A program made the position numbers and the translations under genes. The notes below the pieces were generated by a model. It did no database searches and was not told where the DNA came from. It worked only from the letters and a program-made list of their open reading frames with translations. DNA of 64,000 nucleotides. Source: Nitrospirillum viridazoti CBAmc (lineage in GTDB: Bacteria > Pseudomonadota > Alphaproteobacteria > Azospirillales > Azospirillaceae). The DNA is taken from positions 372,001 to 436,000 of the forward strand of contig NZ_CP022110.1 in assembly GCF_000730165.1 (NCBI RefSeq), given 5' to 3'. This document shows positions 10,172 through 64,000 of the stretch, in pieces (position 1 is the stretch's first letter; each line of letters starts with the position of its first letter).

Positions 10172-11418
10172 TGGGCGGACTGGACTACGATACCGCCAAG
10201 AAGCTGGCTACCGGCGATGCGGCCGACCGGCGTTTCGTCGCCTCGCGCGCCGAGACCCAGCCGGAAATCCTGTATCTGCTGGCGACGGACAAAAGCGCCG
10301 AGGTGCGGCGAGAGATCGCGCTGAACAGTTCCACGCCGCGCCAGGCGGACATGATGCTGTCCACCGACGTGGACGAGAGCGTGCGCAGTGGCCTGGCCTC
10401 CAAGATCGCGGCCCTGGTGCCCACGCTGTCCGCCGACCGGGTGGGGCAGATCGAGCGCATGACCCTGCAGATCCTGGAGACGCTGGCCCGCGACCGGGCG
10501 GCGGCGGTGCGCGGCGTCATGGTGGCGGCGCTGAAGGATCTGCCCAACGCCCCGCCCACGGTCATCCAGCAGCTGGCCCGCGACCTGGATGCCTCCATCT
10601 CCGGTCCCGTCCTGCGCCACTCCCCCATCCTGACCGACGACGACCTGCTGGAGATCATCGCCGGGGCCCCGGAGGATGAGCGGCTGTGCGCCATCGCCGA
10701 GCGTGCCGACGTCAGCGTCGCCGTGTCCGACGCCATCGTGCAGACGGAGCGCGAGGCGGCGGTGGCCAGCCTGCTGGGCAACGCCAGCGCCCAGATCCGG
10801 GAAGAGACGCTGGACCGCATCCTGGATCTCGCGCCCAAGCATGAACCTTGGCACGCCCCGCTGGTGCGTCGCCCCCACCTGCCGCCGGCGGCGGCCGCGC
10901 GCATCGCCGGCTTCGTCACCGACAGCCTGGTCAAGGTGCTGGAAAGCCGCAGCGACCTGCCGGCGGAAACCCGCCAGGCCATCACCCAGGCCGTGCGCCA
11001 GCGCCTGCCCGCCGCCAAGACCGGCGCCGGAACGGGCAACGGCCTGGTGGATGAGGAGGAAGCGCCCAAGGAGCGCCCGGCCGACCGGGCCCGGCGCCTA
11101 CACAAGGAAAAGAAGCTGACGGAGGATACGGTGACCATGGCCCTGGGCCAGGGCGACCGCGGCTTCGTCATGGCCTCGCTGGCGCTGCTGTCCGGCCTGC
11201 CCCAGCCCATCGTGGAAAAGATCATCGCCGGCCAGAGCCCGCGCGGCGTCACTGCCCTGTGCTGGAAGGCCAAGCTGACCATGCGCGCCGCCCGCCAGGT
11301 GCAGATGCGCCTGGCCCAAATCCCCCCGTCCAATGTGCTGAACGCCCGCGAGGGCACCAAGTACCCTATGACCGACGACGAGATGAAATGGCAGCTGGAA
11401 TTTTTTGGGGTTGAATGA
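10171..11418 (+). CDS. DUF2336 domain protein
   Basis: This 415-residue, mostly helical protein of the DUF2336 family is common in alphaproteobacteria. A HEAT-like pattern is visible (KSAEVRREIALNSST, ESVRSGLASKIAALV, AAVRGVMVAALKDLP). A C-terminal part (from about residue 290, RLHKEKKLTEDTVTMALGQG) matches the second half of DUF2336 proteins. No catalytic residues are evident; the family's function is unknown to me. The ATG at 10171 overlaps the cyclase stop and its own stop overlaps the next ATG, giving a tightly coupled trio. The coupling to a GGDEF protein suggests a signalling role, which is inference. Confidence 0.85.
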   Translation: MGGLDYDTAKKLATGDAADRRFVASRAETQPEILYLLATDKSAEVRREIALNSSTPRQADMMLSTDVDESVRSGLASKIAALVPTLSADRVGQIERMTLQILETLARDRAAAVRGVMVAALKDLPNAPPTVIQQLARDLDASISGPVLRHSPILTDDDLLEIIAGAPEDERLCAIAERADVSVAVSDAIVQTEREAAVASLLGNASAQIREETLDRILDLAPKHEPWHAPLVRRPHLPPAAAARIAGFVTDSLVKVLESRSDLPAETRQAITQAVRQRLPAAKTGAGTGNGLVDEEEAPKERPADRARRLHKEKKLTEDTVTMALGQGDRGFVMASLALLSGLPQPIVEKIIAGQSPRGVTALCWKAKLTMRAARQVQMRLAQIPPSNVLNAREGTKYPMTDDEMKWQLEFFGVE

Positions 11419-59314: not shown

Positions 59315-59377
59315 ACAGCCTGGCCTCCCTGGGCCGGCACGATGCCGGTCCAGGCCCCGGCCCCCGTCGTGCAGGGC

Positions 59378-59701
59378 TTAGTTGGAGAAGGGTGAGCCGG
59401 GAATGGGCAGCACGAAGCCGCCCAGCAAGGGCAGCACGATGACCTTGGTGCCGTAGGGGGAGGACGATGAGCCGCCCGTGGTGGTCACGGCGGTGCGGTT
59501 GCCGGCGGCGTCGTAGGTGTAGGTGGTGATGGCGCCGCCGGGCCCGGTCACCTTGGTCAAGCGTCCCAGCGTGTCGTACTCATACTGCGACGTGCCGGCC
59601 CAGGCGACGCCGGTCAGCAGCGTGGTGGCCATGACGGTGGCAAGGGCGAAACCGGCGCGTCGCGTCCGGCTGGGCGCGGTGGGGACGAAACGGGACGTCA
59701 T
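59378..59701 (-). CDS. Mini YD-repeat (RHS-type) secreted protein
   Basis: This encodes 107 residues. The N-terminus is a signal peptide (AGFALATVMATTLLTGVAWA). The mature part begins with two YD repeats: YEYDTLGRLTKVTGPGGAIT and TYTYDAAGNRTAVTTTGG. A short Ser-rich link and a hydrophobic end follow (KVIVLPLLGGFVLPIPG). It is far smaller than any RHS core, and divergent from the large RHS gene 431 bp away. No frameshift or longer homologous reading frame was seen, so it looks like a genuine small protein. Confidence 0.7.
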   Translation of the reverse strand: MTSRFVPTAPSRTRRAGFALATVMATTLLTGVAWAGTSQYEYDTLGRLTKVTGPGGAITTYTYDAAGNRTAVTTTGGSSSSPYGTKVIVLPLLGGFVLPIPGSPFSN

Positions 59702-60132
59702 GAGGCCTCCTGGACGGTCAGCATGCTATGGCGCGACGGGTACTTATACCGGGCGCCACCCGTAGCGGCGCCATATAATTCAGCCATTTTCTATCAAAAA
59801 TAACCACGGCCTGATATGAGCCTCGACGCTCCATCCGTCGCCGTATCCGGGTGGATGTCCCGCCATCGGCACGATATGGACGTGGCGGGCGGAAAAATTC
59901 CATTGAAAGGTATTGGCCGGTTCGTAGACGTTAGGTTATCTTACTTTTGGCATATTATATAAAGGATGCACGGCGGCGATGGGAAAATATTTGGCATCAA
60001 GCGGGATCCCTCATCGGCGGCGGCTCCGTCCCGACGCCTCCCGGCCATCGCACTTGACCTCGGCCTTTCGATAAAGCGGCGACCTCGCCGCCGCAGGCCG
60101 TTGATTGGTCTCCCGCCGTACTGTGAGGAAGC
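59702..60132. other. AT-rich intergenic region between mini YD and large RHS genes
   Basis: This 431-bp region is noticeably AT-rich at 59770-59810 and 59920-59970 (gcatattatataaaggat). It must carry the divergent promoters. A short open frame on the minus strand at 59718-59903 has no signs of coding. Confidence 0.5.
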
Positions 60133-63100
60133 ATGATTTTCGCCCGTTGCCGTGTCGCTGTTGGCCTAGCCTTTTTTAGTGCTTTTTCCATCATAGTTCT
60201 GGCGGGGTCACGAGATGGATATGCACAGAGCGCCTTATCGGATCCGGCGCCTATTTACTCTGCGGTGGATCCACAGAATGTTGATCTGGGAAGCGGTCAT
60301 TTTACATTGACTGTTCCAGAGGTGATTATTGGTCAGCCAGGAGCGGGTGGATTATCTTATGCTAGAACTTTTACGGGTACGGGATGGCGCGACAATTTGT
60401 CTTGGCAAATTTATAAGAATGGAACTGATTATACGGTTTCGACGGGGACAGCATCCGAGAAATTCTCATTGTCAGGAAACGGCAATTTTACTAACACTGT
60501 AGGCAGCGGATCAACGCTAACGGTTGATTCGAGTGGGTTATATTATTACACTATGGGCGATGGAACCGTCGCAATATTTTCTAATACTTATATAATTTCA
60601 AGTGTAACAAAGCCCTCTGGTGAGATAATTAAATGGAATTACGTTTTTCCACAAATATGCACACCTGCATGTGTTGTTGCGGCGCGCCTTCAGTCTGTGA
60701 CTAATAATTTTGGATACCAGATTCATTTTAATTATTCCTATGACGGTGATCCAAATAATGGTGGAAGTAATGGTTTCATATCAGGAACGACGAACGCCAA
60801 GAATTTTATGAAAATAGCAAGTGTAGTCGGATTTAATCAAACAATAGATATTTGTTCGCCAATTGCGCCGACTTGCTCACTCAGCCAAAACCAAAACTGG
60901 CCCACTGTTAATTACACAATCCCATCTGACGATAACAATGCTCTTAATGTCACAGATATGCTGGGGCATACTACGCGTTATAGCTATCATTCCGGTCTCT
61001 ATATAACCGCCATCCGCCGCCCCTCAAGCGGCAGTGACAATGTCACCATCAGCTATAACAGCCTGGGGTATGTTAGTTCAGTAAGCAATGGTGCTGGCAC
61101 CTGGAACTACAGCTATTCCGATAACGGTAACGTTCGCACCACCACGGTGACGGATCCCCTGAACCATCAGCGCGTGGTGACCAGTAACATCCTCACTGGC
61201 CAGATGCTGAGCGACACCGATGCGCTGCTCAACAAGACATCGTACAGCTATGACAGCTATAACCGGCTAACGCAGGTGACGCAGCCGGAAGGCGACTACG
61301 TCACCTATGATTACGATAGTCGCGGCAACGTCACGAAGACGACGACGTACGGCAAGCCGGGCAGCGGCCTGGTGGTGTGGTCTGAGGCCACGTATGAGAG
61401 TGGCTGTTCCAACCCCAAAACCTGCAACAAACCCAGCGGCAGCCACGACGACAATGGCCATTGGACCTACTACACCTATGATCCGACGCACGGGGGTGTA
61501 AAGACAATCACCCGGGATGCTCCCGGTGCCGGCAAGGCCCAGCCCCAGGCGCGGTACAGCTACGGCCCGTACCAGGCGTATTACAAGAACAGCAGCGGCA
61601 GCTTGACGGGCGGCGGCACCATCTATCTGCCTACGGGCACGTCCACCTGCGTCAACGGCAACTGGACGGGCTCCGCCTGCGACACCACCGGCAACAATGG
61701 CCAGAATGGGGTCGAGTCCAAGACCAGCATCGGTTACGGCGACACCTCGGGCAGCCAGGCGAACAACCTGCTGCCAGTGTCGATGACGCAGAGTTCAGGC
61801 GATGATTCGGTGTCGGCGACGACGAGCGTGACCTATGACAGTGTGGGCAACAAGCTGACGGTGACGGGGCCGGCCAACACCGGCACCACGCGGTATCGCT
61901 ATGACGCCGTCCGCCAGATGGTGGGCGTGGTGGGGCCGGCGGCTGGTGCGTCGGGCAAGTACCGGGCGACCGCCATCAGCTACAATCCAGACGGTCAGGT
62001 CACGGACACCAGCCAGGGTACGGTCAACGGCCAGTCGGATGGCGACTGGTCCAATTTCGTCACGCTGCAGAAGACGACGGTCATTTATGACGGCCAGGGT
62101 CGCAAGACGTGGGACGTGCTGAAGGACGCTGGCGGGAATGAGCTGGTGACGACGGCATACGGCTATGATGCGGCCAACAACCTGATCTGGACGACACGGC
62201 CCATGAAGGGCACCGGCGACGACCGGTGGATCAACTACGGCTATGACGCCGTGGGGCGGTTGACGCAGGTGAAGGATACCAGCAACCAGATCATCTCCGG
62301 CACCAGTTACACTGCCAACGGCCTGAAGGCGACGATGGTGGACGGCAATAACCACACCACCAGCTACACCTATGACGGCTTCAACAACCTGACGCTGGTG
62401 ACCTATCCGGCGGTGAACGGCACGGCCTTCACCGATGCCTACAGTTACGACAATAATTCCCGGATGACGTCGTGGCGGCAGCGGGACAATCAGACGACGA
62501 TGGGATACACGCGCGACGCCCTGGAACAGGTGACGAACCGGAGCGTCGGGAACTTCAACTACAGCTATGACAATCTGGGTCACGTGACGCAGGCGACGGC
62601 GGACGGCAAGGCGTCGGTGACCACCGTCTATGACGCGCTGGGCCGGTTGACCAGCCAGACGACGGACGGGCGCAAGGTCTCCGCGCAATATGATGCCGCC
62701 GGCCGCCTCCAGCGGTTGATTTGGCCGGACGGAACCTACGCCGACTACAGCTATGACGCGACGGGGGCGATGACCGGCATCTCGGTCAACGGCAACTGGG
62801 TGCAGAGCTACAGCTATGATGACTTGGGCCGGCGGCAATCGACGACGCGGGCCAACGGGGTGACGAGCGTCTATTGTTTCGACAGCGCGTCGCGGCTGAC
62901 GTTCCTGGATCTCGGCGGAACCGCCGGCCAGTGCAGTGACAGCTCCCCCCGCCTGACGTCGCTGAGCTTCGGTTACAATCTGGCGGGCCAGATCCTTAAA
63001 AGGACGAATTCCAACGCGGCCTATGATGGCACAGTGCCGATGAACGGCACGACCAACTACGCCAACAACGAATTGAACCAGACAACCTCCGTTTCGGGTC

Positions 63101-64000
63101 CGTCCGGCACCTCATCGCTGACTTATGGCCCTCGGGGCAATCTGTACACTTATGGGGCGACCACGACGGCCCATGACGCCGATAGCCAGATGGCCAGCGT
63201 GTCGCCAGCCACCAGCCTGGGCTACGACGCCATGGGGCGCCTATCCCAGGTCGGCCAATCGTCGACCACGCGCTTCCTGTACTTCGGCAATCGCCTGGTG
63301 GCGGAGTACGACAGCTCGGGCAACGTGCTGCGCCGCTATATCCCGGGCGCCGCCACGGACGAGACCGCCGTATGGTACGAAGGGCCGGCCATGGGCGTGG
63401 GCCGCTGGCTGATCCCGGATGAGCGTGGCTCGGTGGTGGCGGTGACGGACGGCGGCGGCACCGTGCTGGCCGTCAACACCTATGATGAATACGGCCGCTC
63501 GGGCGCGGGCAACATGGGCCGCTTCCAGTACACCGGCCAGGCCTACCTGGCGGAAGTCGGAGTGTACTACTACAAGGCCCGCATGTATCTTCCTGGCCTT
63601 GGCAAGTTCGCGGAGGCTGATCCGACCGGCTATGCCGCCAGCATGAATGTTTATGCCTACGTCGGCGGTGATCCGATCAACAACGTTGATCCTACGGGAT
63701 TGGACTGTGAATCGGCCGCGTTCGGTATAATGGAATGTGAAGTCACCGCGCAAAGACCGGTTCGCCCATTTTTCCCGACCCTTGATCCCAATGGGATGGG
63801 AAATGTCCTCGCGGATATACACAAGACTTCACTTTCCATGGCGCTACCCGGTGCGGGGATACGGGGCGTCGTGATGGCGTGGAGGGGGCTGGGCATTGTT
63901 GGAAGCGCGGCGAGGTTCCCCCAAATCGCGTCCATGGCTCAAACGGCCGGCGAGGCTGAGGCGCCTGCCGAAGCCGCCATTGAGGAGATAGTTGTCACCG
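60133..64000 (+). CDS. Large secreted RHS/YD-repeat protein, 3' end missing
   Basis: The frame is open from the ATG at 60133 (AGGA five bases upstream) to the window end, at least 1289 residues. A signal peptide is clear (VAVGLAFFSAFSIIVLAG, cleavage near AYA). Residues 35-280 form a beta-rich N-terminal region coded by AT-rich DNA. YD repeats begin near residue 275 and continue to about 1130 (many YSYD, YTYD, YDALGRLT motifs). The RHS core ends with YYYKARMYLPGLGKFAEADP and NNVDPTGLD at residue ~1190. A variable tail begins at 63706 and is cut off. Likely a secreted polymorphic-toxin or adhesion protein. Confidence 0.9.
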   Translation, partial: MIFARCRVAVGLAFFSAFSIIVLAGSRDGYAQSALSDPAPIYSAVDPQNVDLGSGHFTLTVPEVIIGQPGAGGLSYARTFTGTGWRDNLSWQIYKNGTDYTVSTGTASEKFSLSGNGNFTNTVGSGSTLTVDSSGLYYYTMGDGTVAIFSNTYIISSVTKPSGEIIKWNYVFPQICTPACVVAARLQSVTNNFGYQIHFNYSYDGDPNNGGSNGFISGTTNAKNFMKIASVVGFNQTIDICSPIAPTCSLSQNQNWPTVNYTIPSDDNNALNVTDMLGHTTRYSYHSGLYITAIRRPSSGSDNVTISYNSLGYVSSVSNGAGTWNYSYSDNGNVRTTTVTDPLNHQRVVTSNILTGQMLSDTDALLNKTSYSYDSYNRLTQVTQPEGDYVTYDYDSRGNVTKTTTYGKPGSGLVVWSEATYESGCSNPKTCNKPSGSHDDNGHWTYYTYDPTHGGVKTITRDAPGAGKAQPQARYSYGPYQAYYKNSSGSLTGGGTIYLPTGTSTCVNGNWTGSACDTTGNNGQNGVESKTSIGYGDTSGSQANNLLPVSMTQSSGDDSVSATTSVTYDSVGNKLTVTGPANTGTTRYRYDAVRQMVGVVGPAAGASGKYRATAISYNPDGQVTDTSQGTVNGQSDGDWSNFVTLQKTTVIYDGQGRKTWDVLKDAGGNELVTTAYGYDAANNLIWTTRPMKGTGDDRWINYGYDAVGRLTQVKDTSNQIISGTSYTANGLKATMVDGNNHTTSYTYDGFNNLTLVTYPAVNGTAFTDAYSYDNNSRMTSWRQRDNQTTMGYTRDALEQVTNRSVGNFNYSYDNLGHVTQATADGKASVTTVYDALGRLTSQTTDGRKVSAQYDAAGRLQRLIWPDGTYADYSYDATGAMTGISVNGNWVQSYSYDDLGRRQSTTRANGVTSVYCFDSASRLTFLDLGGTAGQCSDSSPRLTSLSFGYNLAGQILKRTNSNAAYDGTVPMNGTTNYANNELNQTTSVSGPSGTSSLTYGPRGNLYTYGATTTAHDADSQMASVSPATSLGYDAMGRLSQVGQSSTTRFLYFGNRLVAEYDSSGNVLRRYIPGAATDETAVWYEGPAMGVGRWLIPDERGSVVAVTDGGGTVLAVNTYDEYGRSGAGNMGRFQYTGQAYLAEVGVYYYKARMYLPGLGKFAEADPTGYAASMNVYAYVGGDPINNVDPTGLDCESAAFGIMECEVTAQRPVRPFFPTLDPNGMGNVLADIHKTSLSMALPGAGIRGVVMAWRGLGIVGSAARFPQIASMAQTAGEAEAPAEAAIEEIVVT

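What the first reader, a model, noticed from the sequence alone, without database searches (positions are those of the whole stretch)
60133..60960. AT-rich foreign-looking N-terminus fused to a host-like RHS core
From 60133 to about 60960 the coding DNA uses AT-ending codons (AAT, TTT, ATA, AGA) and is far less GC-rich than the rest of the window, while the YD-repeat core from about 61000 has host-like composition. In classic Rhs systems it is the C-terminal tip that is AT-rich and exchanged. Here the exchanged part seems to be the secreted N-terminal domain.
Basis: partly seen in the sequence, partly recalled or inferred. Interest (0 to 1): 0.62.

Follow-up and report, generated by a model that had tools for sequence, protein, structure and literature searches.

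The report
Mosaic secreted Rhs toxin, both ends AT-rich
The odd AT-rich stretch is the first part of the shell of a secreted bacterial toxin gene whose two ends both differ in composition from its middle; the toxin comes with its own immunity gene and a tiny secreted partner, and its relatives sit next to type II secretion machines, which probably export them to attack rival bacteria.

Summary
Residues 1-300 of the Rhs gene have GC3 0.37 and codon usage unrelated to the host (r=0.04), while the core is host-like (r=0.95). The window ends inside the gene; beyond it lies the classic AT-rich C-terminal tip, a Tox-REase-7 nuclease with an overlapping HEAT-like immunity gene. Its codon usage resembles the N-terminus (r=0.76), so both ends deviate. 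The N-terminus is not a foreign domain: all four same-genus homologues carry it (48-51% identity), and profile and fold comparisons place it as the start of the Rhs shell. It does seem to have its own history: the relative with the 78-81% identical core has an N-terminus only about 50% identical, and trees conflict, modestly. The gene lies in a clean 5.76-kb insertion with a divergent small secreted two-YD-repeat protein. Same-genus Rhs loci, and Asticcacaulis, Methylomonas and Variovorax plasmids, carry this trio beside gsp (type II secretion) operons. Export through a T2SS, as shown for Xanthomonas Bcn-A, is the best inference. New variant of a known kind.

The parts
59315..64000 (.). Insertion absent from the other genomes of the genus: mini-YD + Rhs + immunity, about 5.76 kb. 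It continues beyond the window to window-equivalent 65077 (L002 3316-9078).
   Evidence: In G001, G002, G003, G004 and G006 the cobT-side flank (to L002 3313-3316) and the other flank (from L002 9078-9084) are separated by only 0.08-0.33 kb; G005 matches the cobT side only.
59378..59701 (-). Mini-YD: 107-aa secreted protein = signal peptide + two YD repeats + C-terminal VIVLPLLGGFVLP motif
   Evidence: PF05593 E=7e-17; present next to all five N-section Rhs genes of the genus and, with the same tail motif, at four more loci.
59702..60132 (.). Divergent intergenic region between mini-YD and Rhs, about 55% GC
   Evidence: composition profile
60133..64000 (+). Rhs toxin gene, 1395 aa in full (L002:4134-8321); cut by the window end at residue 1289
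   Evidence: RHS_repeat, Rhs_assc_core and Tox-REase-7 matches
60133..60228 (+). Sec signal peptide (residues 1-32), A-x-A motif just before the conserved start of the mature protein
   Evidence: read from the sequence; conserved in the four same-genus homologues; no signal-peptide predictor was run
60229..61032 (+). The finding: AT-rich N-terminal section (residues 33-300), first part of the Rhs shell; GC3 0.35-0.37
   Evidence: homologues; Rhs-shell match
61123..63702 (+). YD-repeat core (residues 331-1190), host-like codon usage
63619..63699 (+). DPTG-(19 aa)-DPTG pair at the end of the core, the usual Rhs self-cleavage signature (residues 1163-1189)
   Evidence: read from the sequence; the first DPxG motif is invariant among the aligned homologues
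63778..64000 (+). Start of the variable C-terminal tip (residues 1216-1395; Tox-REase-7 at 1298-1377 lies beyond the window). The immunity ORF (224 aa, weak HEAT) follows at window-equivalent 64320-64994.
   Evidence: PF15649 E=1.4e-17; immunity ORF overlaps the toxin stop codon; GC3 0.57 and 0.41

Best explanation
The gene encodes a Sec-exported Rhs polymorphic toxin, most likely antibacterial. The signal peptide takes it to the periplasm, where it would fold as a closed Rhs cage; the DPxG pair is expected to cut the tip free inside the cage, and the tip is a restriction-endonuclease-fold nuclease (Tox-REase-7) neutralised in the producer by the HEAT-like immunity protein. From the periplasm it is probably exported by a type II secretion system, because same-genus relatives and more distant Sec-type Rhs genes sit beside gsp operons together with the same kind of small secreted two-YD-repeat partner; this copy is an orphan that could use one of the two gsp sets elsewhere in its genome. 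The AT-rich N-terminus is the first section of the cage. It is homologous in all relatives but has been exchanged or has diverged independently of the core, and like the tip and the immunity gene it keeps an AT-rich composition that the core lacks: the gene is a mosaic with two deviant ends around a host-like middle, and the whole cassette was inserted next to cobT. Shown: composition, homology, insertion, toxin domain, gene linkage. Inferred: self-cleavage, nuclease activity, immunity, T2SS export, role of the mini-YD protein, and recombination as the cause of the mosaic.
For: Composition and codon use: (N vs tip+immunity r=0.76; N vs host 0.04; core vs host 0.95). Toxin and immunity; the Tox-REase-7 motifs GxxxE, IxD, ExK, Q and the ImmHEAT partner listed in PMC3482391 can be read in the tip (GRDGE, IPD, EVK, QQ). 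Insertion. N-section homologous and collinear. N-section is shell: its profile matches solved Rhs cores (8qjc E=1.6e-5; 8qjb 3.5e-5); the model aligns to Rhs cores from mature residue 9 to 1156 (8qjb, Z 24.3, rmsd 24.0, 846 aligned). Mosaic: core trees join the query with G003b and G003a with G006; the N tree does not (p-AU 0.041 and 0.025); core data reject the N grouping of G003a, G003b and G004 (p under 1e-45); core 78-81% vs N 50% identity to G003b. T2SS linkage: five genomes of the genus; Methylomonas, Asticcacaulis, Variovorax. Experimental precedent: Xanthomonas Bcn-A, a 1398-aa Rhs bacteriocin whose activity is lost in a T2SS (xpsD) mutant (PMC7259588).
Against: This locus itself has no gsp genes, and six Caulobacteraceae-type loci and the Sphingomonas and Burkholderia plasmid loci examined have none nearby; genome G636, with three such Rhs genes, has no GspD above cut-off, so T2SS linkage is not universal. 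The N-versus-core tree conflict is modest (p-AU 0.03-0.07, weaker with fewer outgroups or without the query), and AT bias can pull a sequence to the base of a tree. The immunity assignment rests on position plus a HEAT match below cut-off. The structure model has low confidence (pLDDT 60, pTM 0.45) and the matches have large rmsd.
Confidence: 0.62

Rival explanations
1. Foreign secreted N-terminal domain recently acquired from an AT-rich unrelated organism and fused to a resident host-like core.
For: Codon usage unrelated to the host; different history from the core.
Against: The region is collinear and 48-51% identical to the N-sections of four same-genus Rhs proteins (28-35% to all others), grouping with them at 90/93 support; it forms the start of the shell, not a separate domain; no closer relative in 398 genomes of the phylum, 385 of the class, 82 of the order, or in phages or viral contigs.
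Confidence: 0.1
2. An AT-rich rhs allele (N-section, tip and immunity gene from one donor) entered the genus, and homologous recombination with a resident GC-rich rhs core overwrote the middle. The core, not the N-terminus, is then the replaced part.
For: N-section and tip+immunity share codon usage (r=0.76), the core matches the host (r=0.95); core 78-81% identical to G003b.
Against: AT-rich tips are the rule and need not share a donor with the N-section; no intact AT-rich allele was found; the linker before the toxin domain (residues 1216-1280) has intermediate GC3.
Confidence: 0.3
3. No exchange: the N-section simply evolves faster and drifts to AT under weak constraint, or because low GC near the start favours expression.
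For: N-section identity is below core identity in all close pairs listed; N GC3 is below core GC3 across homologues (Wilcoxon p=0.015; 0.03 without the query).
Against: G003a and G003b N-sections are nearly as GC-rich as their cores; G003a and G004 have N identity 71% over residues 36-150 but core identity only 33-60% over residues 331-1050, which drift alone does not give; the stretch is about 300 codons long.
Confidence: 0.25
4. The gsp neighbours are coincidental: the 3' end of the gsp operon is only an insertion hotspot and the Rhs proteins leave the cell another way.
For: In the genus the Rhs genes lie downstream of gspK, and a gspK fragment lies beside a Rhs gene in G003 C44; many Sec-type Rhs loci have no gsp genes.
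Against: The position relative to gsp genes differs between the genus, Asticcacaulis, Methylomonas (between the gspE-side genes and gspD) and Variovorax; in the genus the second gsp set is always beside Rhs while the other set is not; Bcn-A needs T2SS.
Confidence: 0.3

Closest known systems
Bcn-A of Xanthomonas perforans (T2SS-dependent Rhs bacteriocin, PMC7259588)
   Same: 1398-aa Rhs/YD-repeat protein (here 1395 aa), active in the supernatant, small accessory ORFs, immunity gene downstream; activity requires the T2SS secretin
   Different: Gammaproteobacterial; the passages read describe no neighbouring gsp operon and no two-YD-repeat partner; its sequence could not be compared here; its tip is not reported as Tox-REase-7
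Classic enterobacterial Rhs elements (Jackson et al. 2009, PMC2935791)
   Same: GC-rich core, AT-rich exchangeable C-terminal tip, clade-specific N-terminus
   Different: Here the N-terminus differs within one clade of closely related cores and is itself AT-rich; Sec signal peptide; no VgrG or PAAR context seen
Sec-signal polymorphic toxins with RHS repeats and Tox-REase-7 / ImmHEAT (Zhang et al. 2012, PMC3482391)
   Same: General-secretory export, RHS repeats, Tox-REase-7 tip and HEAT-type immunity are all listed there
   Different: That paper's 'T2SS' means the general secretory pathway; the held text mentions neither secretin nor GspD, and gsp gene linkage or the mini-YD partner was not found described
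Solved Rhs cages (8qjb, 8qja, 7q97 RhsA, 8uy4 Tse15)
   Same: Sequence and predicted fold of the shell, including the N-section
   Different: Those are T6SS effectors

Membership tests
Rhs polymorphic toxin | YD/RHS repeats and Rhs-associated core domain | tested here: met
   PF05593 E=2e-35; TIGR03696 E=3e-19
Rhs polymorphic toxin | Variable C-terminal toxin tip after a conserved core end | tested here: met
   Identity to same-genus homologues falls from 62-90% before residue 1190 to about 6-33% after it; Tox-REase-7 E=1.4e-17
Rhs polymorphic toxin | Adjacent immunity gene | tested here: inconclusive
   A 224-aa ORF overlaps the toxin stop; HEAT_2 E=0.12, below cut-off
Tox-REase-7 | Motifs GxxxE, IxD, ExK, Q | tested here: met
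   GRDGE, IPD, EVK, QQ read in the tip; motif list from PMC3482391
T6SS Rhs effector | N-terminal PAAR or VgrG domain, or neighbouring T6SS genes | tested here: not met
   Sec-type signal peptide; no PAAR/VgrG match in the protein; none noticed among neighbouring ORFs (neighbours not scanned by profile)
T2SS-exported Rhs (Bcn-A-like) | Sec signal peptide | tested here: met
   Read by eye, conserved in homologues; no predictor run
T2SS-exported Rhs (Bcn-A-like) | gsp genes in the same genome | tested here: met
   Two gsp sets in G000 (C2 and C3); the C3 set lies beside another Rhs gene and a mini-YD gene
T2SS-exported Rhs (Bcn-A-like) | Secretion lost in a gspD mutant | not testable with these tools
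   needs an experiment

The most novel reading that the evidence does not exclude
A dedicated type II secretion module for Rhs toxins exists in alpha-, beta- and gammaproteobacteria: a gsp operon, a small secreted two-YD-repeat partner, and a Sec-type Rhs toxin with two exchangeable ends, a C-terminal toxin tip and an N-terminal shell section that sets export or target recognition.
Probability: 0.25. Interest if true: 0.72.

Novelty: new variant of a known kind. Interest (0 to 1): 0.48.

Why it matters
Rhs toxins of Gram-negative bacteria are studied mostly as T6SS effectors. A recurrent gene trio of gsp operon, tiny secreted YD-repeat protein and Sec-type Rhs would point to a second, contact-independent export route, supported experimentally (as far as the papers found here go) only for Bcn-A, and to a partner protein with no assigned role. 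The mosaic suggests that the N-terminal shell section can vary independently of the core, which makes its part in export or target recognition directly testable.

Tried and rejected
Foreign N-domain from another phylum, a phage or a plasmid: only an Asticcacaulis plasmid (30%) and alphaproteobacterial genomes matched; viral contigs and phages gave nothing. Mini-YD as a mere rhs fragment: rejected, since the tail motif and YD pair recur at nine loci, nearly all with a signal peptide. tRNA-borne insertion: no tRNA in the locus. T2SS linkage as a general rule: rejected, many Sec-type Rhs loci lack it. Whole-genome download was not available. Small AT-rich secreted ORFs between gsp and Rhs: no convincing Pfam match. 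Bcn-A could not be compared because its sequence was not among the records reached. An N-only tree without the query was too weak to decide (p-AU 0.074).

Full report
WHAT IS THERE. The window is G000:C1:372001-436000 of a 7.38-Mb, four-contig genome. It starts with a Sec-type signal peptide (read by eye), continues into YD repeats and the Rhs-associated core, carries a DPTG...DPTG pair at the core end (sequence), and ends in a Tox-REase-7 nuclease tip (E=1.4e-17). A 224-aa ORF overlaps its stop codon and has a weak HEAT match; Tox-REase-7 with HEAT-type immunity is a listed pairing (PMC3482391).

THE OBSERVATION. The AT-rich N-terminal stretch is real: GC about 39-40% at 60350-60950 in a window of 69% GC, GC3 0.37 over residues 1-300, codon usage uncorrelated with host genes (r=0.04), while the core is host-like in codon usage (r=0.95) though lower in raw GC. 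GC3 climbs gradually between residues 260 and 320. So this is not an inversion of the classic pattern but the classic pattern plus a second deviant end.

IS THE N-TERMINUS FOREIGN? No, in the sense meant. Four Rhs proteins of three same-genus genomes (G003 twice, G004, G006) carry the same section, collinear and 48-51% identical over residues 36-300; those of other genomes are 28-35% identical. The profile of the section matches the start of solved Rhs cores (8qjc, 8qjb), and an AlphaFold model, of low confidence, aligns to Rhs cores from mature residue 9 onwards. It is the first part of the cage. Searches of phages, viral contigs, plasmids, 385 class, 398 phylum and 82 order genomes gave no closer source.

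DOES IT HAVE ITS OWN HISTORY? Probably. The relative with the most similar core (G003b, 78-81%) has an N-section only 50% identical; G003a and G006 have cores 76-78% alike but N-sections 50% alike, while G003a and G004, with cores 33-60% alike over residues 331-1050, share 71% over residues 36-150. Core trees pair the query with G003b and G003a with G006; the N tree puts G003a with G004 and the query outside. The AU test rejects the core pairs on N data at p=0.041 and 0.025, and the N grouping of G003a, G003b and G004 on core data at p below 1e-45; with fewer outgroups or without the query the N signal weakens (p 0.03-0.07). GC3 lower in N than in core by more than 0.1 is seen in 6 of 15 homologues (Wilcoxon p=0.015, 0.03 without the query), but not in G003a or G003b. 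Exchange of N-sections among related alleles, or replacement of the core of an AT-rich allele, both fit; I cannot separate them.

THE CASSETTE. In five of the six other genomes of the genus cobT is followed within 0.1-0.3 kb by the gene that lies beyond the immunity gene here, and the sixth matches on the cobT side only: mini-YD, Rhs and immunity gene form one 5.76-kb insertion (window 59315 to 65077-equivalent). The mini-YD gene (59378-59701, minus strand) encodes a signal peptide, two YD repeats and a VIVLPLLGGFVLP tail. It is divergent from all five N-section Rhs genes of the genus, and the same tail occurs at four further loci. Small secreted YD-repeat proteins also lie beside Sec-type Rhs genes in other alphaproteobacterial genomes and on Asticcacaulis, Burkholderia, Variovorax and Methylomonas plasmids.

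THE SECRETION LINK. Five genomes of the genus, this one included (C3), have a second gsp operon with gspE, F, G, J, L, M, D and K directly beside a Rhs and a mini-YD gene; the other gsp set of the genus is not beside Rhs. The same trio occurs on plasmids of Asticcacaulis, Methylomonas and Variovorax, with different gene orders, which speaks against a simple insertion hotspot. It is not universal: several Sec-type Rhs loci have no gsp genes nearby, and G636 has no GspD above cut-off. Xanthomonas Bcn-A, a Rhs bacteriocin of the same size, needs the T2SS secretin for activity (PMC7259588). In the paper library only that paper holds rhs, gspD and polymorphic toxin together; the library lacks most subscription journals.

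VERDICT. A Rhs toxin cassette that is ordinary in its main parts, with an unusual mosaic of two AT-rich ends and, through its relatives, a likely type II export route and an uncharacterised small partner.

Noticed in passing
window 59378-59701; L024:2272-2577; L023:5421-5855; L025:994-1314; L022:4827-5225; L108:16661-17104; L113:4762-5136; L114:5581-5811; L115:11587-11871: A family of small secreted proteins with two YD repeats and an almost invariant VIVLPLLGGFVLP tail, beside Rhs genes; no assigned function.
   Followed up: partly
L098:13536-14774, L108:17215-19212, L099:8113-8487 and 10672-11007, L024:1882-2253: Several small secreted proteins of about 110-200 aa, many AT-rich, lie between the gsp genes and Rhs or inside the gsp operon; no convincing Pfam family (one weak DUF5992, one weak DUF6410).
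   Followed up: partly
L113:4191-4535: A gspK fragment beside a mini-YD gene and a 2287-aa Rhs frame in G003 C44, looking like the relic of a gsp operon.
   Followed up: no
L108:9839-16444: The second Rhs gene of this genome (2201 aa) has a different N-terminus that reads like a transglutaminase-like domain, similar by eye to the Methylomonas plasmid Rhs (L134).
   Followed up: no
L024:2769-3365 and L027:87-680: A second type of small YD protein, with a tail of repeated units around DIAAAGVxPxxHY, also beside Rhs.
   Followed up: no
L002:14457-17614 (just beyond the window): A transposase-like ORF 6 kb downstream of the cassette, followed by an AT-richer stretch whose two ORFs read by eye like a DarT/DarG (macrodomain) toxin-antitoxin pair.
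   Followed up: no
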